A DNA stretch of 64,000 bases. It comes from a virus. The stretch covers positions 27,447-91,446 of IMG/VR virus record IMGVR_UViG_3300036985_001509; one strand, given 5' to 3'. Below, in pieces: positions 8,834-43,449 of the stretch (positions within the stretch are counted from its first letter, which is position 1; every line of letters starts with the position of its first letter). Position numbers and translations under genes: made by a program. Under the pieces are notes generated by a model that was given only the letters and a program-made list of their open reading frames with translations, ran no database searches and was not told the origin of the DNA.

Positions 8834-8838
8834 TTGTA

Positions 8839-9810: not shown

Positions 9811-9815
9811 CTAGT

Positions 9816-10292
9816 TTACTTTTTCCATTCGTGATAAATATGCTGATATCTATCGTCGGTTTTGATGTAGTGAGACAACAATCTTGATGTGTTTCTGGAG
9901 GGTTTGAAATACCACAGTCCTGAGTGTCTAAACCTAGCTGTGTCTTTAAACCAAATCCATCCGAAGAAATACCCCTCTGTGTGGAAATTGAAGTTGTAGA
10001 TGCGCTTGCCCTTTTCCTTGGTCTTCTTCCAATCTATGGGCAGGTTGACAAACTCTTTACCATCCACCCCCTTCATCTTTCTGCGCTTCTTCTTATTAAT
10101 AGAGAACTCACCAAACCCAAACGGAAGCTTTGCTCTTTCCCCTGTCTCCAGGATGTATTCTTTGAAAGCTTCGTTATAGGTGTAGATGATATCTCTCCAT
10201 TCATCAAACGTAAGTTTGATAGAAGGATTCTTCTTACAGAAATTGTTGTAGTTTTCTTTGCTGGCGCTTCTCCAGTCTATTTTGATTCGCAT
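9816..10292 (-). CDS. HU/IHF-like DNA-binding protein of the structural operon
   Basis: This 158-residue basic protein has a helical N-terminal half with FDEWRDIIYTYNEAFKEYI, then a GFGEFSINKKKRRK segment at about residues 60-73 that resembles the start of the beta arm of HU/IHF proteins (the KLPGFGxFxIxKK pattern). crAss-like phages are known to encode IHF-like subunits among virion genes, which fits this location between two tail-ring genes. The C-terminal 60 residues are rich in aromatic and basic residues and go beyond the usual 90-residue length of HU. It probably binds DNA near the portal or in packaging (inference). Confidence 0.6.
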   Translation of the reverse strand: MRIKIDWRSASKENYNNFCKKNPSIKLTFDEWRDIIYTYNEAFKEYILETGERAKLPFGFGEFSINKKKRRKMKGVDGKEFVNLPIDWKKTKEKGKRIYNFNFHTEGYFFGWIWFKDTARFRHSGLWYFKPSRNTSRLLSHYIKTDDRYQHIYHEWKK

Positions 10293-10295
10293 GGC

Positions 10296-11024
10296 TTATC
10301 TCAAGTTTGGAGCGTTTGGTGCTTGACCATCAACTCCATCACTTGTGATGTCTGTCTTCAACCTGAAGTAGGTAGTTAATAACTTCTGAGAAGTTAATTC
10401 AAGAACTTGCTTTTCTAGATAACCAGGAACAGGAGACTCTTTATCAAGAGGATTCTTGCAGAGTTCTTCTGTTGTATATTCTGGTGTGCCACAGCCACAC
10501 TCTGGATACATAATGGAATTAGGAACATCCTCCTCGAACAAAGCAACAAGTCTGATGGCTTTCAGGAGGGGGTTGTTCACATAGAGATACCCATTAGAAA
10601 TCCAGTAGTATTCTTCCTTCTTAATGATAGGAAGCTTAAGCAAGTTAATGTATCTGTTGATGGTTATTTCTTTTAGTTTCTTTCCCTGTCCACTCATGGC
10701 ATTAATAGAGTAGACACCCTGTATAACATACTGGTAGTTACCCTCTGTAACGCGTGGAAGTTTGAACCTGGTTCTAGCCACGGAACAAGGATCTACGTAG
10801 TCACAACATTCAGAAATAGGAACTTCCACCATCTCCAGACAGGGAACGGTGGTGAATACTGTGTCAGTAGCCCAAAGCTTCCTCAGATTAGTCTCACGTT
10901 TAATCAGGAGGAAGGCATTGTTCTTAATCTCAGACATGACAGCTCTGTCCGTGATCAAGCTATCTGTAGACAGAAGCTTGTGCATGGAGCGCACGTCTGA
11001 AACTAATTTCCTAAAAGTAGCCAT
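10296..11024 (-). CDS. Head-tail connector / tail stabilisation protein candidate
   Basis: The gene encodes 242 residues and lies between the metallophosphoesterase gene (one-base overlap) and the HU/IHF-like gene (3-base gap). It begins with a helical region (residues 1-45) followed by beta-rich sequence with a CGCGTPEY segment at about 175-182. Gene order matches the ring or stabilisation proteins that crAss-like phages carry next to IHF-like genes. The specific role is inference. Confidence 0.55.
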   Translation of the reverse strand: MATFRKLVSDVRSMHKLLSTDSLITDRAVMSEIKNNAFLLIKRETNLRKLWATDTVFTTVPCLEMVEVPISECCDYVDPCSVARTRFKLPRVTEGNYQYVIQGVYSINAMSGQGKKLKEITINRYINLLKLPIIKKEEYYWISNGYLYVNNPLLKAIRLVALFEEDVPNSIMYPECGCGTPEYTTEELCKNPLDKESPVPGYLEKQVLELTSQKLLTTYFRLKTDITSDGVDGQAPNAPNLR

Positions 11025-12274
11025 TATAAATACTGTTTGAATATATTCGTCATCCCGTCTCTAACATCTATAAGGAACCCTGTCACCTCGCTCTTACTCA
11101 CTGTGTATCCATTCTTGTCATCCCAAGAGCTCTTGGCTGATGAAAAGGCGGGAAGCTGATAGAACTTAATACCATTGAAATCTAAACTTAATTCATGGTG
11201 TTTGTCTCCTGTGAAAATGTAGAAGTTATCATGGCGTGACCACTCTTCTTTATACTCCATGGGAAACAGATTAGCAAGCTTGGCAGGTTTGATAGCATCT
11301 CCGTGGTTAAACATCATAGCTGACTTTCCGTAGCTCAGATACTTTCTGTACTTAGGGGAGATGTCAAATATCACACGATGCTGATTTCTGTAGTAGGTTT
11401 GTAACCAACTGGCCAAGTGCCATCCTACATATTCATCGTGATTACCTGCTACAAACACAACCTCTACTGTCTCACTGTGGTGGAGAAGTAGGTTGATAAC
11501 ACTTATCTCATGATCACAAATGGCTTCAAAAGCTTCATGATAGGATAGGATGTTCTGTTGCGGGGTTCCTTTTGTAGTTGAATTGGTGAACTCGCTATTA
11601 AACTCGTCCGAACCAATTATGTATTTTGTCTCTGAGAGATTGTTTGAGAGACCTGCCTGGATTAAGATGATTTCCACCTTTTGGATGAAATCACCGAATC
11701 TCTCATCAATATCATTGTTCCCATTAATGTCCAGCTTATTTAGGTGGGAGTCCTGTTTGTTGATAATCAAGCACCCTTCTCTTTTACCAGGCTCGTAGGT
11801 AGGAGCCATTATATCAGGAGAAGAAGGCTGGTAGTTCCCAAGGAAGGATATAAAGTTGTCCTGGAATAGCTGATCTTCTTTTTTCTTACCCAACCAGGCT
11901 TTTACCTGGTAGTGAGGTGTTTCAGCATTACCCCAGTAGTTTTGGACGTATTTAGTTATCTCCCACTTGTCCGTATCAATCTTGCACTTTTCAATTAACT
12001 CATCTAAACTCTTGATTTCTTCCTTACTATTGAAGACCACCTCACCAGTTCCTTTCTGCACATCCTCAAAGAATCTTACAATTTGATCCTCTAGTTCTCC
12101 AATATAGTTCCCAATCTCCGCATCATTCTCCGCAGTTTCTGCGTTTCTCAACTCTCTAATCAACGCATCCACCTCATCCTCTGTAGTGTTTAGTTTGTCT
12201 GCATAGAACTTTTTGCTCTTTTTCCAGTGGAGCATTTGCTCTAGCTGGTGCAGAAGAGATTGATTTTCAGGCAT
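11024..12274 (-). CDS. Calcineurin-like metallophosphoesterase
   Basis: The 416-residue protein carries the five motif regions of metal-dependent phosphoesterases: DSH (D175, H177), GSDEF (about 221-225), GNHD (277-280), FNHGD (about 323-327) and TGDKHH near residue 354. The family hydrolyses phosphodiester or phosphomonoester bonds with two metal ions, and SbcD/Mre11 nucleases belong to it. The first 110 residues lack the catalytic motifs and include a helical segment (residues 20-43) resembling a DNA-binding helix-turn-helix. It is the first gene after a terminator and has its own host-type promoter at 12303-12334. Its placement between fibre and tail genes is unusual for a DNA enzyme. Substrate unknown. 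Confidence 0.8.
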   Translation of the reverse strand: MPENQSLLHQLEQMLHWKKSKKFYADKLNTTEDEVDALIRELRNAETAENDAEIGNYIGELEDQIVRFFEDVQKGTGEVVFNSKEEIKSLDELIEKCKIDTDKWEITKYVQNYWGNAETPHYQVKAWLGKKKEDQLFQDNFISFLGNYQPSSPDIMAPTYEPGKREGCLIINKQDSHLNKLDINGNNDIDERFGDFIQKVEIILIQAGLSNNLSETKYIIGSDEFNSEFTNSTTKGTPQQNILSYHEAFEAICDHEISVINLLLHHSETVEVVFVAGNHDEYVGWHLASWLQTYYRNQHRVIFDISPKYRKYLSYGKSAMMFNHGDAIKPAKLANLFPMEYKEEWSRHDNFYIFTGDKHHELSLDFNGIKFYQLPAFSSAKSSWDDKNGYTVSKSEVTGFLIDVRDGMTNIFKQYL

Positions 12275-12302
12275 TTATAATTTTGTTTAATTAAAATTGC
12301 CC

Positions 12303-12334
12303 TAAAGGTACGATACTTTTTGATATTTTCCAAA
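12303..12334 (-). promoter_or_regulatory. Bacteroidota-type promoter for the metallophosphoesterase/tail operon
   Basis: Reading the minus strand, TTTG (plus 12331-12334) is followed by 20 bases and then TACCTTTA (plus 12303-12310), seven of eight bases of the TAnnTTTG consensus. It lies between the terminator at 12389 and the start codon at 12274. Confidence 0.7.
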
Positions 12335-12375
12335 TTATTTTAACCACTCAGGTTAGCGTGAATAACCAAGTTGGT

Positions 12376-12437
12376 TATAAATAAAAAACTCCCCAGGGTA
12401 GAAACCCCAGGGAGAACGCCCTGAAAACCAACAAACA
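12376..12437 (-). terminator. Strong intrinsic terminator after the Thr-repeat fibre gene
   Basis: On the minus strand a 10-bp stem (plus 12389-12398 with 12405-12414, two G-U pairs, 6-base loop) is followed by TTTTTTATTT. Upstream, AAAAACTCCC near plus 12425-12436 can pair with the GGGGAGTTTTTT at the stem end, so an alternative, mutually exclusive fold is possible. The terminator separates the fibre genes from the metallophosphoesterase/tail operon. Confidence 0.85.
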
Positions 12438-12453
12438 GGGAGTTTTTGATTAG

Positions 12454-14043
12454 TTACGGAGTCTCATCAACCGTTACCGTAATGCTATGATTGCTGTCTA
12501 GGAAGTAGTTCTTAACAGAATTCACAGATGTTGATATCGCAGAAGGTACAGTGATTGTCTCACCAGAGCTGCCATCATTAGCAGTTCCTACAATTGTTAT
12601 CGTGTATGCCTGTGCTAATACCAATTCACGTATTGTTACATTACAGTATCCAGCAATATTTGATTGAGTGATAGGACCAGCCTGACCACCGTTTATGATC
12701 ACCTCAATAGGTGTGCCTGTTCCAGGCGAGTATAAACAGTTAGCCAAGTCTGCTGTGTAATCATTTGTTGTAGGATCTCCAGCTCCTCTTTGAATTATCA
12801 TGTCACCATCTCCCAGTGTAGGAGAAGTTACCACTGTAAAGCAAGTGTTAGCACTTAAGGTAGGAAGAGGCACAAATACTGTTTCACCAGGTATACAAGT
12901 GACAGGATCAAGAGGATTAGAAGAATAAGGGAAGTAGTCAATGAAGTATGCATATTCTGTAGTTCCTCCTCCAATAGAATATGGAGTACCACCCACAGTA
13001 ACAGAATAGCTATTCAGAGTGACACCCAACGGAGTTGTCAAACCTGCATCAGAGAAGAACGCAATCCATACAGATTTAGATTGAGAAGGTTCTGCTACAG
13101 GACCTCCATCACAAGTAACATTTGTTGTGGTATCTACCTCTCCTTGAGACCAGAACAATGCTGCATAGGCATCTTCAGGGAAGCCACTGGTAATACAGAA
13201 AGCAACAGTGGTCGTGGTTGTAGTTGTAGGAGGAATGCCAGTAGTAGTTGTGGTAGTTGTTGTAGGAGGCTCAATAGTGGTTGTAGTAGTGGTAGTGGGT
13301 GATTCAATAGTTGTAGTGGTAGTTGTTGTAGGAGGTATTAATGTGGTTGTAGTTGTGGTAGTAGGTGGTACTAAAGTAGTTGTAGTAGTAGTGGTTGGAG
13401 GCTCAATAGTGGTTGTAGTTGTGGTGGTTGGGGGAATAAGAGTAGTTGTAGTAGTTGTAGTTGTGGGCGGTACAGCTGTTGTAGTTGTAGTTGTTGTAGG
13501 TGGTGTAGTGGTAGTTGTTGTTGTAGTTGTGGGACACGCGCCAAGAGTTGAAAGCGTTACACCAGGGATGGGTGGTACAACAACAGATCCTGTACAAGCA
13601 CACACATAAATAGTGCTAGGTCCTGCGACACATGTTTGAATGTATATTCCTCCACAAGCGTAGTAAACAATGTCAACACTTGAAACAGTGGAATTGGTTA
13701 CAGAATAGAATGTACAAGAAGGACATGCTATTGTAGTGGTGGTAGTAGTAGTTGGAACTACAGTTGTGGTGGTGCTGGTTGTTGTTGGGCAACAGTTGTT
13801 CAGAGAAGCTTGAAGAATACTGATTTGTTGCTTCAACAAACATATTTGAGCATCAACCTTTTGAAACGCTACAGTTACTGTGTCACAGGTCTTGATTTGT
13901 GTACAAGGTAGATTGGGACCACTATAAGAAACGTTATTTGTTGGTATAGGAGATGCATTACAAGGATCGCATCCACCATATCCACCACAGGGAGATGGAG
14001 GTGGGGTTGGTGTGCAGCACGGGTTTGGTGGTAGGAATATCAT
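12454..14043 (-). CDS. Fibre-like virion protein with a long Thr/Pro tandem repeat
   Basis: The protein has 529 residues. Residues 1-40 are Pro/Cys-rich, followed by a short helical coiled-coil-like segment (about 55-80), a Thr linker, a Cys-containing domain of about 55 residues starting CPSC, then about ten units of a run of seven or more Thr followed by x-x-P-P (about residues 170-280), and finally a beta-rich C-terminal region of about 240 residues. The arrangement (short N-terminal attachment part, flexible stalk, globular tip) suggests a virion fibre or decoration (inference). The Cys domain resembles those at the end of the muzzle-like protein. The gene is followed by a strong terminator and preceded by a collar-domain fibre gene. 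Confidence 0.75.
   Translation of the reverse strand: MIFLPPNPCCTPTPPPSPCGGYGGCDPCNASPIPTNNVSYSGPNLPCTQIKTCDTVTVAFQKVDAQICLLKQQISILQASLNNCCPTTTSTTTTVVPTTTTTTTIACPSCTFYSVTNSTVSSVDIVYYACGGIYIQTCVAGPSTIYVCACTGSVVVPPIPGVTLSTLGACPTTTTTTTTTPPTTTTTTTAVPPTTTTTTTTLIPPTTTTTTTIEPPTTTTTTTLVPPTTTTTTTLIPPTTTTTTTIESPTTTTTTTIEPPTTTTTTTTGIPPTTTTTTTVAFCITSGFPEDAYAALFWSQGEVDTTTNVTCDGGPVAEPSQSKSVWIAFFSDAGLTTPLGVTLNSYSVTVGGTPYSIGGGTTEYAYFIDYFPYSSNPLDPVTCIPGETVFVPLPTLSANTCFTVVTSPTLGDGDMIIQRGAGDPTTNDYTADLANCLYSPGTGTPIEVIINGGQAGPITQSNIAGYCNVTIRELVLAQAYTITIVGTANDGSSGETITVPSAISTSVNSVKNYFLDSNHSITVTVDETP
13203..13533 (-). repeat. Tandem Thr/Pro-coding repeat, about ten units
   Basis: Units of about 33-36 bases each encode a Thr run plus a short spacer such as IEPP, LIPP or LVPP. 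Codons within the units vary (ACC, ACT, ACA), but the overall pattern is highly regular, so unit number could change by recombination. Confidence 0.9.
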
Positions 14044-14064
14044 TTTATATAACGAGTTTAACTA

Positions 14065-15180
14065 TTAAGGAATGTACATGATGTAATAGCATCCCAGACC
14101 AGGCTGGAAGTTAGGGTGGCTTAGTCCACCTCCTGCAGAAGCAACTGTAACAGTGGTTGCTACAGTGATGCCTGTTAGTGCTGTATCTACAACATCAACT
14201 CTTACCTTTCCATTTTCCCAGTCAAATGCATCAGAGCCACTAGTGCTAATGCCAGTTCCTCTTCCATCATTACCAGCGTATGTGTCTGGAATAAGACTAT
14301 GTTGGTGACCAGGGTCTGTTGGGGTACTTACAGCAGTGGCAGGGTGCGTGTGGGAAGGAATCTGATTAGTAGTGAGGACTACAGAGTTAGTTCCTTGTGC
14401 TCCGAATAATGCATAAGCAGGGTTACCAAGAGCTGGATCAACAACAGGACTTAAAGCACCCCCACCCATACCAGATGTAACACCAACTGGTACACGTCCT
14501 CTTTTATCAGGAGTACCGTTGTTACCATTACAGAGGTAGATTTTATCCCAAAGACCAAGTCCAGCACCTGTAGCGTCAAAGTTACCTGTTAAGCTACCAT
14601 AGTATTCAACAACAGTGAAAGGCACCATTCTAGTATTGTAGTTGGTACCACCTCCACTGATTGATGCTAAATATGCAGCAATCAGTGTGTTTAGGTTTGC
14701 AAGCTGTACATAGTTGGTACTTACGTTCAAAGCAAGTGCGTCCAACTCAACCTCCAGACCGCAAATCTTAGTAATGGCTGCCTGAAGGATGGCATGTGTT
14801 CCAGAAGTGCTGGTTACACCAGTGAGACATCCAATTGTATAAGGTCCTTCTAGTGCAGCAAAGTCAGCCTCTAATTCTGTCAGACGTTCGTCTAATTCAC
14901 AGATGGCTTTAATTAGAGCACTAATTACATTAGGAAGTGTAAGGTCTTCACAAGCGATTAAGTTTTTCTTTACAATATCGCAAATGATGGCAGGATTAAT
15001 ATCCAACGTAATACCTTCACCATTCAGTGTAGATGTAAGAAATCCAATCAATGCTTGCTCTACATATGAGAGCGAATCACCAGTCTTGATTCCCAAAATG
15101 GGAACATCAATCCCTGTATATCTTACACACTGATCAGATACTATCTCCGTACATCCATTATAGCAGTTAGAACAAGACAT
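14065..15180 (-). CDS. Tail-collar-domain fibre protein
   Basis: The C-terminal part of this 371-residue protein matches the phage tail collar fold (PF07484 type): an N-terminal strand at about 195, WDKIYLCNG at about 218, DKRGRVPVGV at about 231, and then the histidine pairs IPSHTHP and PGHQHS that bind metal in trimeric fibres. Residues 1-60 are Cys-rich and include a helical YVEQALIGFL segment; 60-190 contain helices and beta strands, likely a trimeric stalk. It probably forms a head or tail fibre used in host recognition (inference). The gene lies 21 bases upstream of the Thr-repeat protein gene, suggesting a joint fibre. Confidence 0.8.
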   Translation of the reverse strand: MSCSNCYNGCTEIVSDQCVRYTGIDVPILGIKTGDSLSYVEQALIGFLTSTLNGEGITLDINPAIICDIVKKNLIACEDLTLPNVISALIKAICELDERLTELEADFAALEGPYTIGCLTGVTSTSGTHAILQAAITKICGLEVELDALALNVSTNYVQLANLNTLIAAYLASISGGGTNYNTRMVPFTVVEYYGSLTGNFDATGAGLGLWDKIYLCNGNNGTPDKRGRVPVGVTSGMGGGALSPVVDPALGNPAYALFGAQGTNSVVLTTNQIPSHTHPATAVSTPTDPGHQHSLIPDTYAGNDGRGTGISTSGSDAFDWENGKVRVDVVDTALTGITVATTVTVASAGGGLSHPNFQPGLGCYYIMYIP

Positions 15181-15447
15181 TTATCTAAATTTTAGAATTT
15201 TAACTCTGCTGGCAATCATGTTTACACTGAATGCAGCGTTATAATCGGGATTGCAATACTTATAAACAAGAATCCTCCTGTAGTTCAGAAGGTCCAACAT
15301 TGTTCCACCAGGAACAGGTTGGTTCAAAATAAATACAACATTGTTGTATAAATTGTTAGCCAGGTCAGCTAGTCTGCAATCTATCTCAGCAATAAGTGCT
15401 GGGATACTAGCGCACTCTGGACAATTTGTAAGCCTGGGTGATAACAT
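15181..15447 (-). CDS. Small conserved virion-operon protein, unknown
   Basis: The 88-residue product starts with a CPEC pair and continues with a helical region, then an IASRVKILKFR tail. It overlaps the upstream zinc-ribbon gene by 41 bases and abuts the fibre gene. No function recognised. Confidence 0.6.
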   Translation of the reverse strand: MLSPRLTNCPECASIPALIAEIDCRLADLANNLYNNVVFILNQPVPGGTMLDLLNYRRILVYKYCNPDYNAAFSVNMIASRVKILKFR

Positions 15448-15559
15448 TTGTTATAATTTTTCGTCCTTGCTTAGTGGCTGCATTACACAACGCACAAAGA
15501 CCATTAATCAATTGACATCCACACCCAACGTTAGCTCCGCAGTTTCTACATTTTGCCAT
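15407..15559 (-). CDS. Small zinc-ribbon-like protein (50 aa)
   Basis: A short frame starting at ATG 15559 encodes 50 residues with CRNCG, CGC and CALC, six or more cysteines arranged as in a treble-clef or zinc ribbon. It fills the gap between the genes at 15181-15447 and 15561-16124, and its 3' end overlaps the next start by 41 bases. Similar tiny Cys-rich proteins are common in Bacteroidota phages, which supports it being real; the function is unknown. Confidence 0.6.
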   Translation of the reverse strand: MAKCRNCGANVGCGCQLINGLCALCNAATKQGRKIITNVITQAYKLSRVR

Positions 15560-15560
15560 A

Positions 15561-16124
15561 TTAATAGAAATTTATTACGTAGTTGTTCCCAGAGCAACCG
15601 CAGTTATTTCTGAGGAAGTTATCAAGCATCATGTCTGCCTGGTTATATAACCTCATCGCATCCTGTGTAGCGCAGTTGTTAGCTGCTGCTATAGATCCTT
15701 GGATGAAGAAATATATGGAAGTGAGGTTCACCTTTGCTTGTGTTTTAATAGCTCTATCACATTCCATCATATCAAGCTTCATGAATGCGCCATCAAACTT
15801 TTCTTGTAATCTCTCAACACGCATAATTGACTTTTCTACAAAGTTTACATATGCAGGTGCCACTGAGTATTTTAGAAAATACACACCATCAGGAAGTGGT
15901 TGTTCCACTCCTGGTGCAGTGATACCCAAGTTTGAAGAGTTGAAAACATTAAAATCGTTAACGCTGAAAGGTCTAAACACAATACCAAAACCAGGAACAT
16001 TAATCTCAATAGTAGCTCCAGAAACAACAGGGGGGTTTGTAGGATAGACAGATGCATCAGCAACTCCCAACGTAAGTGTGTTGTACGTAGGAATCACTAG
16101 TATGTCTAGTTTCAAGTCTGCCAT
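15561..16124 (-). CDS. Conserved head/tail protein, unknown
   Basis: This 187-residue protein has a beta-rich N-terminal 100 residues and a helical C-terminal half (IMRVERLQEKFDG, then a helix with CDRAIKTQAKV) ending in a NNCGCSGNN segment. It lies just after the hairpin at 16141-16181 in the virion operon. No catalytic motif is visible. It is probably structural by location. Confidence 0.6.
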   Translation of the reverse strand: MADLKLDILVIPTYNTLTLGVADASVYPTNPPVVSGATIEINVPGFGIVFRPFSVNDFNVFNSSNLGITAPGVEQPLPDGVYFLKYSVAPAYVNFVEKSIMRVERLQEKFDGAFMKLDMMECDRAIKTQAKVNLTSIYFFIQGSIAAANNCATQDAMRLYNQADMMLDNFLRNNCGCSGNNYVINFY

Positions 16125-16126
16125 GT

Positions 16127-16181
16127 TGTTTTAAATAAATAAGCCAGAGGATCTGAGTTTGTATCCTCTCACCTCTGGCTT
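16127..16181 (-). terminator. Hairpin terminator or attenuator between virion genes
   Basis: On the minus strand a 10-bp perfect stem (plus 16141-16150 with 16172-16181) is followed by TTATTTATTTAAAA. Inside it, a second 7-bp stem (AGAGGAT with ATCCTCT) overlaps one arm, so two folds compete. Because the next gene starts only about 3 bases after the U-rich stretch, partial read-through is likely. Confidence 0.75.
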
Positions 16182-16217
16182 AGGTTAATATAATATTTCT
16201 ATGTATCTACCCTACTA

Positions 16218-17405
16218 TTACGGAATCAAAGTTGATGTAGTAGTAGTAGAAGGCCATACAGTGGTGGTGGTAGATGTAGTGGTGATACAAGAGTTATCAG
16301 CAGTTACAGTACCCAAACCAGCCTCAAGAACAGCCTCAATGAGTCCACCAATCGGATTAGCAGAACCATTCGCTTGTGTTTGAGGAACAGCGATGATTAC
16401 AGTGCTATCTTCATAGATGTAGTCACCCCACTGATACTCAGACTTGTTGTACTCGTTGAACTTGATGTAGTAGGTATCATAGGTAGTACCATCAGATACC
16501 CAGCTTTCAAAGTTCTCATTGTAGCCACCCATTCTGTAGAGGTGCTTCAAATATCCAGCTTGGTAGCTGTAGAAGTTCTTCTCCAGTTGAGCGATTTCAG
16601 CAGATGTACCAACGGCATAAGAAGAACGCTGTTGGATAACTGGATCAGCTACAATGTTACAATTGTCTGCTACGATGAAGTCAGCTGTGGTAGCGGGACC
16701 GCTATACACGAATGTACGGAACCACATTCTGTCATACTCGAAAGGGAATGCAGCAACATCACAAGGCTGACCATATTTGGTAAGAGGCTTACCAGTGATA
16801 CGCAAGAGTGCGTCTTGGTTGTTACCAATTCTCTGGAACTGATAGAAGTCAGAGAAAGTGATGTTGTCAGGGTTGTTACCAGGAGCCTGATACAAGAAGT
16901 GAAGGATGATGTCATCGATCAAAGCAGGCACATCAACAGTAGTACAAGGATCTCCACCACAATCGCAACAAGGTGCGTTCACAGTGATAGAACGAGTGAA
17001 ACCGTTGAAATACAGGGTATCCAAGTAGCTAGAGTGGGCACGGAGAGTGATGGTAACAATGTCACCACACTGTACGTTCCAGTTTCCTACGTCTGTAATC
17101 TGAGTTACAGGAGTAGGGCAACCTTGCACCTTGTACCACTCAGTTACGTTGCTGTTGCAACCAGATCCTGAAGGACAACCTTTAATCTTATCAGAACGCT
17201 TGGAGCCTTGCAGATAAGTGTTAGTACGGCCCTGCGCAACATAAAAATAGGGAGCAGCGGCAATATTGCCAGCTGTGGCAAGGGTGTAATCATTTCTGAA
17301 GATACCCACTTGGCCAGCGCTCAAGTTTTGCGTAGATCCAGAACTAGGGAGCGCAGTTTGCCCTACTGGTACTACGAAGAGCGTAGTTAATGAAAAATCA
17401 GCCAT
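16218..17405 (-). CDS. Abundant virion protein candidate with Thr-rich C-terminus
   Basis: This 395-residue protein begins with FVVPVGQTALPSSGSTQNL and a YFYVAQGRTNTYLQGSKRSD segment (about 55-72), a beta-rich opening I associate with conserved structural proteins of crAss-like and related phages. A Cys cluster CCDCGGDPC lies near residue 145. The last 20 residues are a Thr/Ser run ending in TLIP, the third virion protein here with such a tail. It is followed by the hairpin at 16141. An auxiliary capsid or head-associated role is inferred from position near the capsid gene. Confidence 0.65.
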   Translation of the reverse strand: MADFSLTTLFVVPVGQTALPSSGSTQNLSAGQVGIFRNDYTLATAGNIAAAPYFYVAQGRTNTYLQGSKRSDKIKGCPSGSGCNSNVTEWYKVQGCPTPVTQITDVGNWNVQCGDIVTITLRAHSSYLDTLYFNGFTRSITVNAPCCDCGGDPCTTVDVPALIDDIILHFLYQAPGNNPDNITFSDFYQFQRIGNNQDALLRITGKPLTKYGQPCDVAAFPFEYDRMWFRTFVYSGPATTADFIVADNCNIVADPVIQQRSSYAVGTSAEIAQLEKNFYSYQAGYLKHLYRMGGYNENFESWVSDGTTYDTYYIKFNEYNKSEYQWGDYIYEDSTVIIAVPQTQANGSANPIGGLIEAVLEAGLGTVTADNSCITTTSTTTTVWPSTTTTSTLIP

Positions 17406-17434
17406 TTTTCTTTATTTTAGGTGATTAAAAAAAT

Positions 17435-18166
17435 TTATTCGTTTGTTTGAATTCTGTATATCGAGTTCTGTACAGCAGGTTGATTCTCAGTGTACATTGC
17501 AAGATTCTGTACTGTTAAGTCTAATAGCTCATCCTCCAGATATAGTTCAAGTTCGCAGTCTTGATCAAATGATGGTTCTCCATCTAGCATGATGTATCCT
17601 GTCTTATTTATATACAAAGGATAACGCATGTAGGATATGTAAATCTTGCTCGGAGTGAAGGTACCATCAGTGAAGATGGATATTTCATCTGTCGAAAGGA
17701 AGTTGAAAGTCTCCTGATATTCAAAGGAAGGCCTGTAGTGATCGTTATTCAGGATGAACTGTAGGTCACCGTGTTTAGCCAAGTCTCTGTTAATCCAGAT
17801 CTTTCTATCCTTACACACCCCCTTGTCAGCCAGTATATAACTATCAATGTAGAACATATACTTGGGAACAAGCAGGTGCAGATTAGCAAACCATTGATTT
17901 AGTTCAACGTTCTTGAGAGTGAGGTCAAGAGGTTGACTGTTATAGGTAACCACTAAGCTTTGGAGGTCCTCGTAACGCTTCTTAAAAGCATCAAGTCCCA
18001 TCCCGCTCACTACACTAAAACCATCAACCTTTTGTTTTATCAGCTTAATCTGGGCTTCATTCAAAGCCAAGATCTTATCTTCTAAGTTTATCTGCTGGTG
18101 TATGTTGGTCGATAGTTTATTTAGTTTTTGGTCAATCTTATATAATAAACTATCTACTGGTATCAT
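17435..18166 (-). CDS. Virion-operon protein, unknown (243 aa)
   Basis: The N-terminal 55 residues are helical (LLYKIDQKLNKLSTNIHQQ); the remainder is mixed alpha/beta with many Tyr and acidic residues. The start overlaps the upstream gene's stop by 4 bases (ATGA), showing translational coupling. No family recognised; probably head-tail connection or completion by location. Confidence 0.6.
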   Translation of the reverse strand: MIPVDSLLYKIDQKLNKLSTNIHQQINLEDKILALNEAQIKLIKQKVDGFSVVSGMGLDAFKKRYEDLQSLVVTYNSQPLDLTLKNVELNQWFANLHLLVPKYMFYIDSYILADKGVCKDRKIWINRDLAKHGDLQFILNNDHYRPSFEYQETFNFLSTDEISIFTDGTFTPSKIYISYMRYPLYINKTGYIMLDGEPSFDQDCELELYLEDELLDLTVQNLAMYTENQPAVQNSIYRIQTNE

Positions 18167-19131
18167 ACTGCAGCTAATTTCTTAGTTTTCAGCTTACCTT
18201 CAAGAGTCAGAAGCAAGTCCTGATTATCGTCGTCAGCAAGCAGTTTAATTAAATCATCTTCGTCCTTAGCTACTTCAAATTCACCCTCATAAACCTTACC
18301 GTTAGGTCTGAGTCGGTATATGGAATGAGTGATTGCTTGTTTCACTAAGTCCTTGATATGGAGTAAGTTATCCCTCATATCTGCGAAGCGTGTGAACACT
18401 TCAACAGGATTTAACCCTTGATACTTACCGTTCTTAAACTCGGTTTGTTTGAGGACATTGTCTACAAGGTTGTAAACTGCTTCCTCTTTAGTATCATCAG
18501 TTACAGGTAATCCCAACAAGCGAGCCACTTTTCTTTTTCTCTCAGGGGTCATACTGTCAAACTTGACAATAGCCTTGTTGATGAGTTGCTTCTTCTTGAA
18601 CATCACTGCGTTCTCAATATCCTCGTCAGCCACATAAAACTGTGTATCTGCAGGAAACTCACCACGCTCCCAAGCTTGATAAGAGCTTGCAATTGTGGGG
18701 TGAACACGCAACCAAGAGAAAGCTAATTCCTGAAGAGGAATAGAAAGATCGAAGAAGTTATCTCCATCCAACAACTTCACAGGTTGAACATGCAACGAGT
18801 CACTTGAGGATGTAGACAATCCATAGTTCCAGAAATTGGAACGAGGACCTAAGTCAACATCTCCTAACGCAGCCTGAAGTTTGTCTCTCAAAGCTGTCAC
18901 ACGCTCAGTCTCCATTTCTCTCTCAAGAGGATCAGAGATTCTGCGAATGTAGGCAGCTTCAGGATCAACTCCTGTGCGGTACTTACCATCAAGCTCTCTG
19001 TAAGGATACTTGAACACCCCTGTTCCAGGGATACGTGTCAGCCCTCTAAGAGAAAGACCACCTTGCATTGTTTGCAACTGAGAGTTGTTATACTCTTTCT
19101 TAATAGTTGAGATTTTACCTAACTTACCCAT
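18163..19131 (-). CDS. Virion-operon protein downstream of the capsid gene (322 aa)
   Basis: The protein is rich in charged helices (DPLEREMETERVTALRDKLQ near residue 90; MTPERKRKVARLLGLP near 200) and ends in TKKLAAV. It is the first gene after the hairpin/tRNA-like region that follows the major capsid gene and is coupled to the next gene by a 4-base overlap. Function not recognised. Confidence 0.6.
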   Translation of the reverse strand: MGKLGKISTIKKEYNNSQLQTMQGGLSLRGLTRIPGTGVFKYPYRELDGKYRTGVDPEAAYIRRISDPLEREMETERVTALRDKLQAALGDVDLGPRSNFWNYGLSTSSSDSLHVQPVKLLDGDNFFDLSIPLQELAFSWLRVHPTIASSYQAWERGEFPADTQFYVADEDIENAVMFKKKQLINKAIVKFDSMTPERKRKVARLLGLPVTDDTKEEAVYNLVDNVLKQTEFKNGKYQGLNPVEVFTRFADMRDNLLHIKDLVKQAITHSIYRLRPNGKVYEGEFEVAKDEDDLIKLLADDDNQDLLLTLEGKLKTKKLAAV

Positions 19132-19158
19132 ATGTAGTTTATTTATTTGGTTTATTAG

Positions 19159-19215
19159 CAGAGATGTGAGGATCGAACCTCTGGCAAACGAGAGACACCT
19201 CGTTCCCCATCTCTG
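19159..19215 (-). ncRNA. tRNA-like element lacking a D arm, in the capsid mRNA 3' region
   Basis: On the minus strand an 8-bp acceptor-like stem (plus 19159-19166 with 19208-19215) encloses a 6-bp anticodon-like arm with a 6-base loop and a T-arm-like hairpin containing TTCGAT. There is no D arm and the T arm is one base short of the canonical form. It is not a normal tRNA; I call it a tRNA-like fold, possibly a processing or stability element. Confidence 0.5.
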
Positions 19216-19221
19216 TAGTTT

Positions 19222-19287
19222 GAGAAGAGCTCCCCCACCCTGAAGTGGGGGGCACTCTCTTCTCGGATATAGTGCAGCTAAGCTGCA
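19222..19287 (-). other. Two hairpins directly after the major capsid gene
   Basis: Hairpin one: a 6-bp stem TGCAGC/GCTGCA with 3-base loop at 19273-19287. Hairpin two: 8-bp outer stem (19222-19229 with 19257-19264) and 7-bp inner stem (19232-19238 with 19245-19251, 6-base loop). Neither is followed by a U run, so they look like mRNA stabilising or processing structures rather than an intrinsic terminator. Confidence 0.7.
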
Positions 19288-19292
19288 GCAGT

Positions 19293-20846
19293 TTAGAACT
19301 GCGGGATTTCTTCAATCAACACTGTACGAGACAGGTCTTCGATGAATACATCACAACGGTCCTTCATCCAGATTTCATATCCTGGGAATTTGTTCGCAGA
19401 GCTCATACCCTGAGACTTAGCAAAGCCTAAGTGATGGCGAGTTCCATCGATATATCCCCAAGTCATAGAAGGTGCACCCTTCATACGAACTTCACGGATG
19501 TTATTAACCATAGAACCATCAGACATCGGAGATACGTCAAACACCATGAATACAGGGGTAGACTTCTTGTTCTGTCCGAATTCCAGGTTAGATTGAGGCA
19601 GGTCAAGTTCTTTCAGGTGAATCAGTTCAACACGACCAGTCTCACGAGTTACCATTGCATCGAATGCAAAGTTGTAAGTGATGTGTTGTCCTTCGCCTTG
19701 CAGGTAACGGTTTCCGCTATCAGCCATGAAGGTCAGACCGCTGTTCAAAGCGTCAGTCTTCAAAGCTTGTTGGAACACGTCAAAACCTGCTTCGTTTGTA
19801 TACATTTTGACACGACGGTCTTTAACATCCACACGACGGTAGAACAGGTCACCAAACACAGCACGGATCAAGTTCGCAGTGAACTCACCACGGTTGTACT
19901 GTACGAGGTTACCGTTGTTACGCATACGATGGTAAACACCAGCAGATGTACGCTTCAGTTCTTGCTTGCTACCGTTAGTCTTAACAGTACCAGGACGAGA
20001 CCAAATCATACGCTTAACTTTCAACTCAAGCATAGACTTACGCATCCAGAACTCAATAAATGGCTCCCACTTAACATCATTACGAGTCAAGGGAAGTTGG
20101 TTACGACGCTGAGGTGCATATACAAGGATATCCAAAGGACGTCCTGCAGAGTCACGCATCATTTTGTCATCAGCCCACTCAGTGATCTTGTGCTCGAAAC
20201 CATATGCAGAACCCAAAGATTCAAACATAGTGATTTGCTCACCCAAACGGGGAAGACCAAGCAGATCCTGATCGAATTCACCGATTGCAGCATCTACCAG
20301 CTCAAGCTCAATACCCACTTGCAAGAATGTAGAACTTACAAAATCTACAGTGGGGTTGTCAGTCACAAGTGTGAAACTGTACAAGAATCCCATGTTCCAA
20401 GGAATAGGGTCCTTGATAACATAGAAGCGAGGACCATACTGACGGCTACCAACAGAAACGATTGCGTTCTTAGAGAACTCGTTTGTGTCAAGCACCAATT
20501 GGAACTCTTGACCATCGATACCAGGCTTGCTCAACTCGAGAGTGGAGTTAGGTACGTCGATAATTTTAGGGAATTTGTAGGGAACAGCTACTTGCCATTT
20601 CCAAGCATCGCTATTATTATCAATGTAATAAGGCGTGCTTTTGTTGATCATGTCGAGGAAGTCATTGCTATACAGAGAGCTCTGCGTGTAGAGACTGATG
20701 ATCTTCTTGTCGTAATCAGCAGGCTCGGTTGAGTGAAAGCTCTCCAGGTGGTTAGCGTCAGTTAGCTTACCTACAGCACGCTTGTCCATAGAAGCGACAC
20801 GAGCATACGTGAAGCCAGTTAGACCTGGGATTGTTTGAATTGCCAT
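19293..20846 (-). CDS. Major capsid protein, crAss-like
   Basis: The 517-residue protein has the length and gene neighbourhood (portal, scaffold, capsid) of the HK97-fold capsid proteins of crAss-like phages. It shows no transmembrane or enzymatic motif; a mid-region with WMRKSMLELKVKR and WSRPGTVK, and a C-terminal region with FPGYEIWMKDRCD, are compatible with that family (by recall, not alignment). Arg codons are mostly CGT, unlike the AGA/AGG-rich neighbours, consistent with very high expression. A 5' space of only 28 bases separates it from the scaffold gene, and hairpins plus a tRNA-like element follow. Confidence 0.85.
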   Translation of the reverse strand: MAIQTIPGLTGFTYARVASMDKRAVGKLTDANHLESFHSTEPADYDKKIISLYTQSSLYSNDFLDMINKSTPYYIDNNSDAWKWQVAVPYKFPKIIDVPNSTLELSKPGIDGQEFQLVLDTNEFSKNAIVSVGSRQYGPRFYVIKDPIPWNMGFLYSFTLVTDNPTVDFVSSTFLQVGIELELVDAAIGEFDQDLLGLPRLGEQITMFESLGSAYGFEHKITEWADDKMMRDSAGRPLDILVYAPQRRNQLPLTRNDVKWEPFIEFWMRKSMLELKVKRMIWSRPGTVKTNGSKQELKRTSAGVYHRMRNNGNLVQYNRGEFTANLIRAVFGDLFYRRVDVKDRRVKMYTNEAGFDVFQQALKTDALNSGLTFMADSGNRYLQGEGQHITYNFAFDAMVTRETGRVELIHLKELDLPQSNLEFGQNKKSTPVFMVFDVSPMSDGSMVNNIREVRMKGAPSMTWGYIDGTRHHLGFAKSQGMSSANKFPGYEIWMKDRCDVFIEDLSRTVLIEEIPQF

Positions 20847-28695: not shown

Positions 28696-29074
28696 ATATC
28701 TTTGGTTTTAAGTCTCTTATCCCGTCAAGGGCTATTTGAAGCTTCAGGGCTGCCGACTTCCTTTTGGCTTCTGGCAGCGTTTCGTCATTTGCCCATTTCT
28801 CAAACAAGGCTTTCTGACTCAGAAACTTCTCCATCGTCTTGTGCGCCTTCTTCTCATTAAAAAACAACTTCCCAAATCCACTGATTTCCAAGCTTTTATG
28901 CTGTGTCAGCGCCTCGTTGGCGCTTTGGAACTGGTGGTTAATAATGGTCTCCAGTGTCTTCTCGCTCATCCTCATCTTGACTGCCATCTTTCTGATGATC
29001 CAGTCCTTGACGGATAGGCTCATTGGCTTATTATCCGTGAACAAGTCTGATTTCAAGGGTGATGTCATGGTCAA
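28607..29074 (-). CDS. HU/IHF-family DNA-binding protein
   Basis: Residues 20-85 follow the HU/IHF pattern: an SVKDWIIRKMAVKMRMSEKTLETIINHQF helical region (quoted in part: TLETIINHQFQSANEAL) and then EISGFGKLFFNEKKAHK, the entry to the DNA-embracing beta arm. The C-terminal 60 residues are extra and charged. IHF-like subunits are a hallmark of crAss-like virion operons. It overlaps the upstream HTH gene by 44 bases and the downstream zinc-ribbon gene by 89 bases. Confidence 0.75.
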   Translation of the reverse strand: MTMTSPLKSDLFTDNKPMSLSVKDWIIRKMAVKMRMSEKTLETIINHQFQSANEALTQHKSLEISGFGKLFFNEKKAHKTMEKFLSQKALFEKWANDETLPEAKRKSAALKLQIALDGIRDLKPKIYESNVSNLRGVEEQPPASQRAEEDDKGYE

Positions 29075-29381
29075 AGTTTAACAGGATTTGAGGGTTCACC
29101 TTCACCTTTGTCCCATCCTTCACCAGCACCCCTATCTTCTTGAGCCTAGAAATGATGTTATTTATGGAGGCATTGGTGGTGCCATATCTCTCACAGAAAT
29201 CCTTACGTATGTTAGCATAAGAGATGTTACCCCTTACAGCAGCAAAAGCCAGAAGTTGTATTTCTCTCTGTGTTAGCTTCAAATCGTTCACAGCAGACAG
29301 AATAGTGTAATACCTCTCCGCTAAGAGTGTACTATCCACCTCTTGTTTCTTCAGCTTCTGTAAGACGATTGTGGCTTTCAT
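29031..29381 (-). CDS. HTH-type regulator, first gene of the leftward operon
   Basis: This 116-residue protein contains LTQREIQLLAFAAVRG and YANIRKDFCERYGTTNASINNIISRLKKIGVL (quoted in part), a winged-helix or MarR-like arrangement with the recognition helix near TTNASINNIISR. It is the first gene after the perfect host-type promoter at 29396-29427, so it may control the switch to virion gene expression (inference). The predicted leader is very short, about 7 bases. Confidence 0.65.
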   Translation of the reverse strand: MKATIVLQKLKKQEVDSTLLAERYYTILSAVNDLKLTQREIQLLAFAAVRGNISYANIRKDFCERYGTTNASINNIISRLKKIGVLVKDGTKVKVNPQILLNFDHDITLEIRLVHG

Positions 29382-29395
29382 AAATTTAGTTAGTA

Positions 29396-29427
29396 CAAAG
29401 ATAAGGGGTTATTCTAACATATTCAAA
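29396..29427 (-). promoter_or_regulatory. Perfect Bacteroidota-type promoter of the leftward virion operon
   Basis: On the minus strand TTTG (plus 29424-29427), 20 bases, then TATCTTTG (plus 29396-29403), an exact match to TTTG-N20-TAnnTTTG. The start codon at 29381 follows 15 bases later, implying a nearly leaderless transcript. Confidence 0.85.
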
Positions 29428-29780
29428 CACAATCTTTTATGCTATAGCTATATTATGTCTTATTTCCAACTTAATCCCGTAAATAGGCTTTCTATCTACA
29501 GGGTGAATAGATCCCATAACCCACCCACCACCCCAAAGCTACAACATCCTTAGGATAGATTCCAAATTTTTTTTCGTAAACCCCCACCCTTACTTTTTGC
29601 CCCCTAGGGTGAGCCCCTAGTTTGACCATCCCCCCTGGTTTGTTCCACGTGAAAAAACCCCCCTATCCGTGAGGGGACGGGTTACTCCACACCAAGGACC
29701 CAGGGGCAGGATGCGCGGTGGGAGCCACCCCCCGTGCTTCGTTAACAAGGAGTCACCTTGTAAAAAACTGTCGAAAAATC
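29428..29780. other. Divergent control region with C-rich structured leader
   Basis: This 353-base stretch has no convincing gene. It holds an AAATTTTTTTT tract at 29564-29574, direct repeats CCCCTAG at 29601-29607 and 29614-29620, many C runs on the plus strand, a parS-like site at 29641-29656, and a hairpin ACAAGG/CCTTGT at 29745-29761 that hides an AAGGAG. Possible rightward promoters are imperfect: TTTG 29596-29599 with TAGTTTG 29618-29624, or TTTG 29639-29642 with TATCCGTG 29664-29671. It could also be a replication origin (inference). Confidence 0.6.
29641..29656. promoter_or_regulatory. parS-like ParB-binding site
   Basis: TGTTCCACGTGAAAAA differs from the canonical parS TGTTCCACGTGAAACA at one of 16 positions. 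No parB gene is seen in the window, so a host ParB or a gene outside the window would have to bind it. Confidence 0.5.
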
Positions 29781-41418: not shown

Positions 41419-42505
41419 AGATGAACGTCAGAAAGAGTTTGCCAGAGCATGGATAGATAGCGGTAAGTTTGGTATTCTCAATCTGTGTCCCAGGTTTGGT
41501 AAAATCTTCACTACTATCAACATCCTTGAGGAGATAAAGCCTAAGAATGTGCTTATAGCCTACCCAGATAACAAGATTAAGGCATCCTGGAAGACAGACT
41601 TTGAGAAACGTGGATATGATGACAGTCATGTCACGTATACCACTCATCTGTCTCTCAAGAAACATCTAGAAGAATCGTTTGACCTAATAGTGATTGATGA
41701 GATACATCTGCTCTCAGAGGCTCAAATAGAAGTGGCTAGAGAGATGATAGATAAACACATGGAATTCAATCACATAGGAGGACATATACTGGGTTTGACA
41801 GGAACTATGACCACTTGGACAGAACGTACACTCTCAGAAGAGCTCGATCTGTCTGTTGTAGCCACATATTCAATAGACACAGCTATACAAGAAGGTGTAA
41901 TTGTGGATTATGAGATTACAGTAGTAAAGGTTCCTCTAGATATCAAACATCTGAACAATTACAAGGGTAAATGGCGCACTGAGAAAGCTCAGTTTGACGC
42001 CTATGGATGGGTGATAAACAGTCTCGAGGCACAGGGTAAATCCACCATGTTTCTTAGACTCGCAAGGATGCGTGTTATACAGAACTCTGTAGCTAAAATG
42101 GAAAAGACTAGAGAGCTACTCAAAAAGCATAAAGATGAACGAGTGTTAGTGTTCTGTGGTGTCACCAAGATAGCTGATCAACTGGGCATCCCATCCTATC
42201 ACAGTAAGAAAGATGAGAAGCAGAAGTTTGAGGACTTTGCTTCTGGTAAGGGTAAGCACATGGCTGTCGTAAAGATTGGTAACACAGGTGTGACTTATAA
42301 ACCTCTCAACCGTGTGATAATCAATTATTTTGACAGTAATGCAGAAAATCTTGCTCAGAAGATTAATAGATGTATGGCTATGGAATATAACAATCCTGAT
42401 AAGAGAGCCCAAATTTACATTGTATGTTCTGATGAGGATGTTGAAGCAAGGTGGCTCAAAAAAGCGCTAGAATTCTTTGATAAATCTAAAATTAAGTTTG
42501 TATGA
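41408..42505 (+). CDS. SF2 helicase, UvsW/DEAD-like
   Basis: The 365-residue protein has the SF2 motifs: CPRFGKIFT at residues 27-35 (motif I; the usual GKT/S is GKI here), DEIH at 97-100 (motif II), GLTGTM near 124 (motif III), and later conserved regions ending with QKINRCMAME. It probably remodels branched DNA during replication and recombination. It overlaps the alpha-CTD-like gene by 4 bases. Confidence 0.85.
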   Translation: MTVRDERQKEFARAWIDSGKFGILNLCPRFGKIFTTINILEEIKPKNVLIAYPDNKIKASWKTDFEKRGYDDSHVTYTTHLSLKKHLEESFDLIVIDEIHLLSEAQIEVAREMIDKHMEFNHIGGHILGLTGTMTTWTERTLSEELDLSVVATYSIDTAIQEGVIVDYEITVVKVPLDIKHLNNYKGKWRTEKAQFDAYGWVINSLEAQGKSTMFLRLARMRVIQNSVAKMEKTRELLKKHKDERVLVFCGVTKIADQLGIPSYHSKKDEKQKFEDFASGKGKHMAVVKIGNTGVTYKPLNRVIINYFDSNAENLAQKINRCMAMEYNNPDKRAQIYIVCSDEDVEARWLKKALEFFDKSKIKFV

Positions 42506-42747
42506 CAGAAGACCACATTGCAAAACATATAGATGATGTCAAGTTATTAAACCGTCTCATTAAGATTAACATAAAGACAGTTGGTGACTTACTTGAGAAC
42601 CAAGATAAGATATTGAATACCAAAGGCATTGGTCAAAAGTCTTGCACTATTATAGATGAGTATTTAGGTACACATCTTTACAAGAAAAAACAAGAGCTTT
42701 TAGAGAGAAAAATTTGGTTGTCTCGAAGAAGTTTGCTATCTTTATAG
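42502..42747 (+). CDS. Stand-alone RNA polymerase alpha-CTD-like / HhH protein (81 aa)
   Basis: Residues 12-57 follow the alpha C-terminal domain pattern: LLNRLIKINIKTVGDLL, a short spacer and KGIGQKSCTIIDEYL, matching the LxxxAInxxGDLL...LGxKSLxEI fold of bacterial alpha-CTD. A helix-hairpin-helix DNA-binding fold is the more cautious reading. The remaining 25 residues are Lys/Arg-rich. It is coupled to the helicase gene upstream and overlaps a promoter downstream. Confidence 0.6.
   Translation: MTEDHIAKHIDDVKLLNRLIKINIKTVGDLLENQDKILNTKGIGQKSCTIIDEYLGTHLYKKKQELLERKIWLSRRSLLSL
42713..42744 (+). promoter_or_regulatory. Bacteroidota-type promoter before the Sak4-like gene
   Basis: TTTG (42713-42716), 20 bases, then TATCTTTA (42737-42744), seven of eight bases of TAnnTTTG. 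It overlaps the 3' end of the alpha-CTD-like gene. Confidence 0.75.
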
Positions 42748-42777: not shown

Positions 42778-43449
42778 ATGGCAAGTAAATTAATCGGAAT
42801 TGTAGGTCAAACAGGCACAGGAAAATCCACAGCTATTAAACACCTAGATCCAAAAGAAACGTACATTATTAACGTAGCAAAGAAAGAACTACCGTTCAAA
42901 GGCTCAGAGAAACTGTACAACGCAGAGAACAAAAATTACAAAGAGGTGGATGATGCAAATGAAATTACACGTTTGCTCAAGACCATTTCAGACAAAGCTC
43001 CTCACATTAAGAATATCGTTATTGAGGACAGCAATTACATTATGGGATTCAACATTGTATCTAAAGCTACAGAAGTTGGTTACACCAAGTTCAGCTTGAT
43101 GGCTAAAGATATGGTGGACCTATTCAGAGAATCCCGCAAACTTCGTGAAGACATTATAGTGTTCTATCTTACACACCCTGAAACTATTGAGGATGGTGGT
43201 GATATTGTAGGATATAAAATTAAGACCGCTGGTAAACTGATTGACAATCAGGTGTTGCTAGAGGGCTTGATGACTGTCTGTCTCTACACTTATGTAGAAG
43301 AGAATAAGGATGGCACAGCTAGCTACCATTTCATCACAAACAGGTTTAAGAAAATGCCTGCAAAGAGTCCAGATGGTATGTTTACAGAAATCAAAATCTC
43401 CAACAACTTACAGTTGGTGGTGGATACAATTAGAGAGTATTATTCATAA
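42778..43449 (+). CDS. Sak4-like RecA-fold ATPase
   Basis: The 223-residue protein has GQTGTGKST near residues 9-17 (Walker A) and IKNIVIEDSNYI near 79-90 (Walker B region). Length and the following SSB-like gene match the Sak4/AAA_24 group of phage single-strand annealing or recombination ATPases. A host-type promoter and the repeated leader precede it. Confidence 0.75.
   Translation: MASKLIGIVGQTGTGKSTAIKHLDPKETYIINVAKKELPFKGSEKLYNAENKNYKEVDDANEITRLLKTISDKAPHIKNIVIEDSNYIMGFNIVSKATEVGYTKFSLMAKDMVDLFRESRKLREDIIVFYLTHPETIEDGGDIVGYKIKTAGKLIDNQVLLEGLMTVCLYTYVEENKDGTASYHFITNRFKKMPAKSPDGMFTEIKISNNLQLVVDTIREYYS

What the first reader, a model, noticed from the sequence alone, without database searches (positions are those of the whole stretch)
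42502..42747. Stand-alone RNA polymerase alpha-CTD-like protein
The 81-residue product has the GDLL and LGxKSLxEI-like pattern of the alpha C-terminal domain. A free alpha-CTD could compete for promoters or activators and redirect host RNA polymerase. It sits in a replication operon, ends over a host-type promoter, and may alternatively be a generic HhH DNA-binding protein.
Basis: inference. Interest (0 to 1): 0.6.

Follow-up and report, generated by a model that had tools for sequence, protein, structure and literature searches.

The report
Phage stand-alone polymerase alpha-CTD-like protein
A crAss-like phage carries a tiny gene whose product resembles the DNA-gripping tail of the host RNA polymerase alpha subunit, and related phages carry textbook versions of that domain at the very same place, so these phages probably use a borrowed piece of the host's transcription machine to influence which genes it reads.

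Summary
The ORF at 42502-42747 (+, 81 aa) is real. It starts on the stop codon of a helicase gene (ATGA) in the replication operon of a crAss-like phage (91-kb record). Its alpha-CTD likeness exceeds chance: Pfam RNA_pol_A_CTD 25.4 bits (cut-off 23.8), rpoA models best in NCBIfam, 0 of 2000 shuffles, hhalign E=2.7e-6 against an alpha-CTD profile that excludes it. The strongest evidence is positional: in relatives the same helicase-Sak4 slot holds unmistakable alpha-CTDs (69-80 bits; L152, L153, L199) and one divergent homologue (L029), mostly with the same ATGA overlap. The window copy is divergent: DNA-contact positions are partly kept, the sigma-contact region is not. The structural match to alpha-CTD depends on true alpha-CTD rows in the alignment (control), so it is not independent evidence. 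Most likely it acts on host RNA polymerase, which is thought to transcribe crAss-like late genes; two perfect host-type promoters precede the late operon here. That function is inference. Phage alpha-CTD proteins are already in databases, so this is a new member of a known kind.

The parts
42502..42747 (+). 81-aa alpha-CTD-like (helix-hairpin-helix) protein; domain about residues 13-56, then a basic helical tail (57-80)
   Evidence: Pfam PF03118 25.4 bits E=1.2e-5; NCBIfam rpoA models E=4.5e-5 and 7.9e-5; hhalign E=2.7e-6 against alpha-CTD profile A7; 0 of 2000 shuffles; homologue L029 50% identical over 50 aa
42502..42505 (+). ATGA overlap of the helicase stop codon and the start codon; suggests translational coupling
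   Evidence: sequence; the same overlap in L153, L199 and L029
41408..42505 (+). SF2 (DEAD/ResIII-type) helicase, left border of the slot
   Evidence: Pfam Helicase_C E=6.5e-8, ResIII E=4.5e-7; phrog_16 DNA helicase
42778..43449 (+). Sak4-like ssDNA-annealing ATPase, right border of the slot
   Evidence: phrog_2872 E=2.8e-52
29396..29427 (-). Perfect Bacteroidota-type promoter match (TTTG-N20-TAnnTTTG), 15 nt upstream of the first late-operon ORF (29031-29381); proposed host RNA polymerase target
   Evidence: TAnnTTTG as flavobacterial sigma-A box: PMC9723704
29534..29566 (-). Second perfect Bacteroidota-type promoter match in the same divergent intergenic region

Best explanation
The gene encodes a divergent stand-alone alpha-CTD: a helix-hairpin-helix domain descended from the C-terminal domain of the RNA polymerase alpha subunit, sitting in a conserved slot between a helicase and Sak4 in the replication operon of a clade of crAss-like phages. 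Shown: homology by profile, the slot, the ATGA overlap, and clear alpha-CTDs in the same slot of relatives. Inferred: the protein is made with the replication proteins, transcribed early or middle by the phage's own virion RNA polymerase, and then acts while host RNA polymerase must take over the late operon. With no alpha-NTD it cannot assemble into RNA polymerase. It would bind DNA upstream of promoters, or bind host activators or polymerase surfaces, in place of the host's own alpha-CTD, lowering host promoter use or favouring phage late promoters.
For: Pfam PF03118 above its curated cut-off; rpoA models the only hits in NCBIfam; hhalign of query+L029 against six alpha-CTDs P=88.6%, E=2.7e-6; a query+L029 profile against PDB ranks alpha subunits first (E=0.04-0.06) ahead of pol beta (0.13); 0 of 2000 shuffles. 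In 134 distinct slot sequences the alpha-CTD HMM picks exactly five: L259/L152, L165/L153 and L199 (90-123 bits), window (17.9), L029 (15.1). No other PF03118 match over the cut-off in about 140 related records. The same ATGA overlap occurs in window, L153, L029 and L199. L029, like L152 and L153, is fused in frame to the same 70-aa protein. Two perfect host-type promoters precede the late operon. crAss-like phages are thought to use virion RNAP for early/middle genes and host RNAP for late genes (PMC10136315).
Against: The sequence is very divergent: 21-25% identical to true alpha-CTDs. L029 prefers HHH_5 (6.5e-5) to PF03118 (0.0038, below cut-off). Position 265 is K in the window and N in L029; position 302 is not E; the sigma-contact region is not kept. 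The structural match needs alpha-CTD rows in the alignment (against 73, 77). The gene is absent from the nearest relatives (for example L002, L003, Sak4 95% identical), so it is accessory. No functional data.
Confidence: 0.5

Rival explanations
1. A generic HhH DNA-binding accessory of replication or recombination that binds ssDNA, forks or the neighbouring helicase or Sak4, with no link to RNA polymerase. Its presence in the slot where others have alpha-CTDs would be replacement by a different HhH domain.
For: L029 scores best to HHH_5 and weakly to RuvA; pol beta HhH is close behind alpha in PDB sequence searches; neighbours are helicase and Sak4; the GIGQK[ST] hairpin is the best-conserved stretch while R265/N268 are not conserved between the two.
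Against: The window protein shows no HHH_5 match at E<=1 and passes the PF03118 cut-off; rpoA is the only NCBIfam match; the slot, ATGA overlap and fusion partner are shared with unmistakable alpha-CTDs.
Confidence: 0.3
2. An alpha-CTD used as an RNA-polymerase adaptor rather than a competitor: it carries a phage protein to host RNA polymerase at promoters, the partner being the 70-aa protein that is fused to it in L029, L152 and L153 and encoded next to it in L199.
For: Fusion and adjacency with the 70-aa protein; full DNA-contact residues and sigma-contact acidic residues in L152/L153/L199.
Against: The window phage lacks the 70-aa protein altogether and its own protein has lost the sigma-contact region; most relatives have the 70-aa protein without an alpha-CTD.
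Confidence: 0.12
3. A decaying former alpha-CTD without function.
For: Divergence, loss of key residues, loss of the downstream 70-aa protein, patchy presence.
Against: The frame is intact, with the same start arrangement and a 50%-identical block shared with L029; L152/L153 CTDs show dN/dS about 0.39, mild constraint in that branch.
Confidence: 0.08

Closest known systems
C-terminal domain of bacterial RNA polymerase alpha subunit (Pfam PF03118)
   Same: Profile score above cut-off; HhH hairpin GxGxKS; predicted helices in the same order; positions equivalent to N268, G296, K298, S299 kept (E. coli numbering and sequence from memory)
   Different: Stand-alone, no alpha-NTD or linker; R265 is K, C269 is R, E302 is I; 261-region lost; extra basic C-terminal helix
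Phage proteins annotated 'RNA polymerase, alpha subunit, C-terminal' (BFVD A0A6J5M7I6, A0A6J5L490 and others, uncultured Caudovirales phages; Rhodococcus phage Finch A0A2P1JY10)
   Same: Phage-encoded alpha-CTD without a full alpha subunit
   Different: Most are 98-240 aa with extra sequence; found only as weak structural matches of our model; genomic context not examined
Bacillus phage Goe8 gp005, 'RNA polymerase subunit alpha' (YP_009849950.1)
   Same: A phage alpha-CTD (RSYNCLKRAGVDTIGQL...RNLGQRS) in a phage early region
   Different: 210 aa with an unrelated-looking N-terminal part; full DNA-contact motif; terminal region of a Herelleviridae genome, not a replication operon
Phage factors that target host alpha by other means (Rac of phiKMV-like phages, PMC7552054)
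   Same: Would also change how host RNA polymerase alpha works in infection
   Different: Rac leads to cleavage of the alpha subunit; here the phage would mimic the domain (abstract only)

Membership tests
RNA_pol_A_CTD (Pfam PF03118) | Profile score at or above the curated cut-off (23.8 bits) | tested here: met
   25.4 bits; 24.5 bits in the genome search. The homologue L029 fails (17.3 bits)
RNA_pol_A_CTD (Pfam PF03118) | Best-matching family is alpha-CTD rather than another HhH family | tested here: met
   For the window protein: PF03118 1.2e-5 against HHH_8 0.13; rpoA only in NCBIfam. Not for L029
RNA_pol_A_CTD (Pfam PF03118) | Alpha-CTD fold | tested here: inconclusive
   pLDDT 74, top Foldseek hits all alpha-CTD, E no better than 0.08; but control without alpha-CTD rows: pLDDT 59, no useful hits
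Functional alpha-CTD, DNA contact ('265 determinant') | R265, N268, C269, G296, K298, S299, E302 equivalents | tested here: inconclusive
   K, N, R, G, K, S, I in the window; all or nearly all kept in L152, L153, L199
Functional alpha-CTD, sigma contact ('261 determinant') | Acidic residues near 259-261 | tested here: not met
   No matching acidic pair at the aligned positions in the window protein; D and E/D present in L152/L153
RNA polymerase alpha subunit | N-terminal assembly domain plus CTD | tested here: not met
   81 aa, CTD-like part only; rpoA equivalog cut-offs far from met
HHH_5 / generic HhH | Match to the HHH_5 model | tested here: not met
   No HHH_5 match at E<=1 for the window protein; L029 6.5e-5 but below cut-off
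crAss-like phage (host genome of the finding) | crAss-like terminase, MCP/portal, giant RNAP-type protein, replication module | tested here: met
   TerL hits Cellulophaga phi17:2, Crassvirales and Azobacteroides phage; MCP and portal PHROGs; giant about 4346-aa ORF with a DFDID motif; Sak4 nearest to crAss-like cr128_1. RNAP activity not tested; family not assigned

The most novel reading that the evidence does not exclude
A clade of crAss-like phages encodes a free alpha-CTD as a hand-over factor: made by the virion RNA polymerase with the replication proteins, it reprograms host RNA polymerase from host promoters to the phage's own host-type late promoters.
Probability: 0.18. Interest if true: 0.75.

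Novelty: new member of a known kind. Interest (0 to 1): 0.42.

Why it matters
How crAss-like phages, among the most abundant viruses known, hand transcription from their own virion polymerase to the host enzyme is not worked out. A free alpha-CTD at a fixed place in the replication operon, with textbook copies in relatives, is a concrete and easily testable candidate for one such control. The set (three clear and two divergent members at the same position) also gives a natural series of how a stolen host domain decays or is reshaped in a phage.

Tried and rejected
Direct searches with the 81-aa protein found no relatives in viral contigs or phage records except chance hits to phage DNA polymerases (E 0.08-0.5); relatives came only through the neighbouring genes. 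An alignment of query+L029 and L029 alone found nothing further. Genome-contig search with A3 found no donor. PHROGs has no match. MT839913 and MT839982 looked like phage alpha-CTDs but are full bacterial rpoA operons filed as phage scaffolds. Structure evidence from A4 was discounted after the control fold. A functional promoter at the 3' end of the ORF was rejected. The 70-aa partner protein is absent from the record. Literature searches on phage alpha-CTD in crAss-like phages found nothing; the primary virion-RNAP paper was not held, so the review PMC10136315 was used.

Full report
What is there. The ORF at 42502-42747 (+) encodes 81 aa. Its ATG overlaps the stop of the upstream helicase gene (ATGA), and the Sak4-like gene begins 30 bp downstream. 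Neighbours are a DnaB-like helicase, SF2 helicase, Sak4, primase and a UDG-like protein. The window is part of a 91,446-base virus record. Terminase, Sak4, capsid and portal matches and a giant ORF (about 4346 aa) carrying a DFDID motif outside the window mark a crAss-like phage. The family was not assigned.

Is the alpha-CTD likeness real? Pfam RNA_pol_A_CTD scores 25.4 bits, E=1.2e-5, cut-off 23.8, the only family above cut-off. NCBIfam returns only rpoA models, E=4.5e-5 and 7.9e-5 for the CTD stretch. A small alpha-CTD HMM built here scores it 17.9 bits; the best of 2000 shuffles gives 9.8 and the next of 229 window ORFs 5.7. A profile of query+L029 ranks alpha subunits first in the PDB (E=0.04-0.06), with pol beta HhH next (0.13). 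hhalign of query+L029 against six alpha-CTDs gives P=88.6%, E=2.7e-6.

The decisive context is the slot. Relatives were reached through the neighbouring genes. In 134 distinct helicase-to-Sak4 intervals, about half are empty (about 26-90 bp) and many hold a 70-aa protein of unknown function (listed). Exactly five hold an alpha-CTD-like protein: L259/L152 and L165/L153 (77% identical to each other), L199, the window, and L029. The first three are unmistakable, at 69-80 bits to PF03118. A PF03118 search of about 140 related records found no other match over the cut-off outside this slot, and none in six named crAss-like or related phages. The ATGA overlap is shared by the window, L153, L199 and L029; in L039/L152 other genes lie between the helicase and the alpha-CTD gene. 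L029 and L152/L153 are fused in frame to the 70-aa protein; L199 has it as a separate ORF just downstream; the window has lost it or never had it. By Sak4 tree distance the carriers are scattered among non-carriers, so the gene is accessory, with repeated loss or gain at one place.

What kind of alpha-CTD? In L152, L153 and L199 the DNA-contact residues known from E. coli (R265, N268, C269, G296, K298, S299, E302; numbering and the E. coli sequence are from memory) are kept nearly completely. In the window these positions read K, N, R, G, K, S, I, and the acidic sigma-contact region is gone. L029 has lost the 265 and 268 equivalents and scores better to HHH_5 than to PF03118. The window protein is therefore a divergent member, and a generic HhH role cannot be excluded.

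Structure. The model with A4 (query, L029, L152, L153) has pLDDT 74 and five helices. Its best 22 PDB matches are all alpha-CTDs, the first 9dvt chain A, probability 1.00, target TM 0.76, 1.8 A, although no E-value is below 0.08. BFVD matches include phage proteins named alpha C-terminal. The control fold without the true alpha-CTD rows has pLDDT 59 and no useful match. The structural result is thus consistent with the alpha-CTD fold but not independent of the alignment.

How it may work. In crAss-like phages the virion RNA polymerase transcribes early and middle (replication) genes, and host RNA polymerase is thought to transcribe late genes (PMC10136315). In this phage the late operon runs on the - strand from 29381. 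In the 337-bp divergent region before it lie two of the window's four perfect TTTG-N17-21-TAnnTTTG matches, one ending 15 nt before the first late ORF; TAnnTTTG is the flavobacterial sigma-A box (PMC9723704). The total of four is only mildly above the 1.4 expected (7 of 100 shuffles reach it); it is their placement that is notable, and that was noticed after the fact. A free alpha-CTD made with the replication proteins could displace host alpha-CTDs from upstream DNA or activators when the host enzyme must be turned to these promoters. This is inference; nothing here shows binding.

'GDLL' is correct; the second motif is partial; the operon context is correct; the promoter over the 3' end is a one-off match at a rate reached by 4 of 100 shuffles and is not supported by a sigma-70 scan.

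Novelty. Stand-alone phage alpha-CTDs are already annotated in public data, though no functional study was found in the held library. The new part is the recurrent, fixed slot in a crAss-like clade and the graded series of members. I file it as a new member of a known kind.

Noticed in passing
window 29381-29718: Divergent region between the late (-) and early (+) modules holds two perfect Bacteroidota-type promoters on the - strand, facing the late operon; a G+C-rich stretch with GGGG runs lies further upstream.
   Followed up: partly
helicase-Sak4 slot, e.g. L038, L043, L199:4498-4710: A 70-aa protein family of unknown function (consensus like KIELVEE..PWY.V.VDG...ILKSEEIDV) occupies this slot in many relatives, no Pfam match and no significant PHROG; fused to the alpha-CTD in L029, L152 and L153.
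   Followed up: partly
L012, L016, L039, L042, L058, L067, L068 slots: About 183-aa proteins beginning MISCIYTITN, which look like GIY-YIG-type homing endonucleases (recognised by eye, not tested), are inserted at the same helicase-Sak4 boundary.
   Followed up: no
G000 record bases about 6437-19477 (L155, L156): Giant about 4346-aa ORF with a DFDID motif, candidate virion RNA polymerase; part lies outside the window.
   Followed up: partly
MT839913.1 and MT839982.1 (phages collection): Records filed as bacteriophage scaffolds are bacterial rpoA-region fragments.
   Followed up: yes
L154:1959-2591 (Bacillus phage Goe8 gp005): A 210-aa phage protein with a well-conserved alpha-CTD at its end, near the genome terminus; an independent phage use of alpha-CTD.
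   Followed up: no
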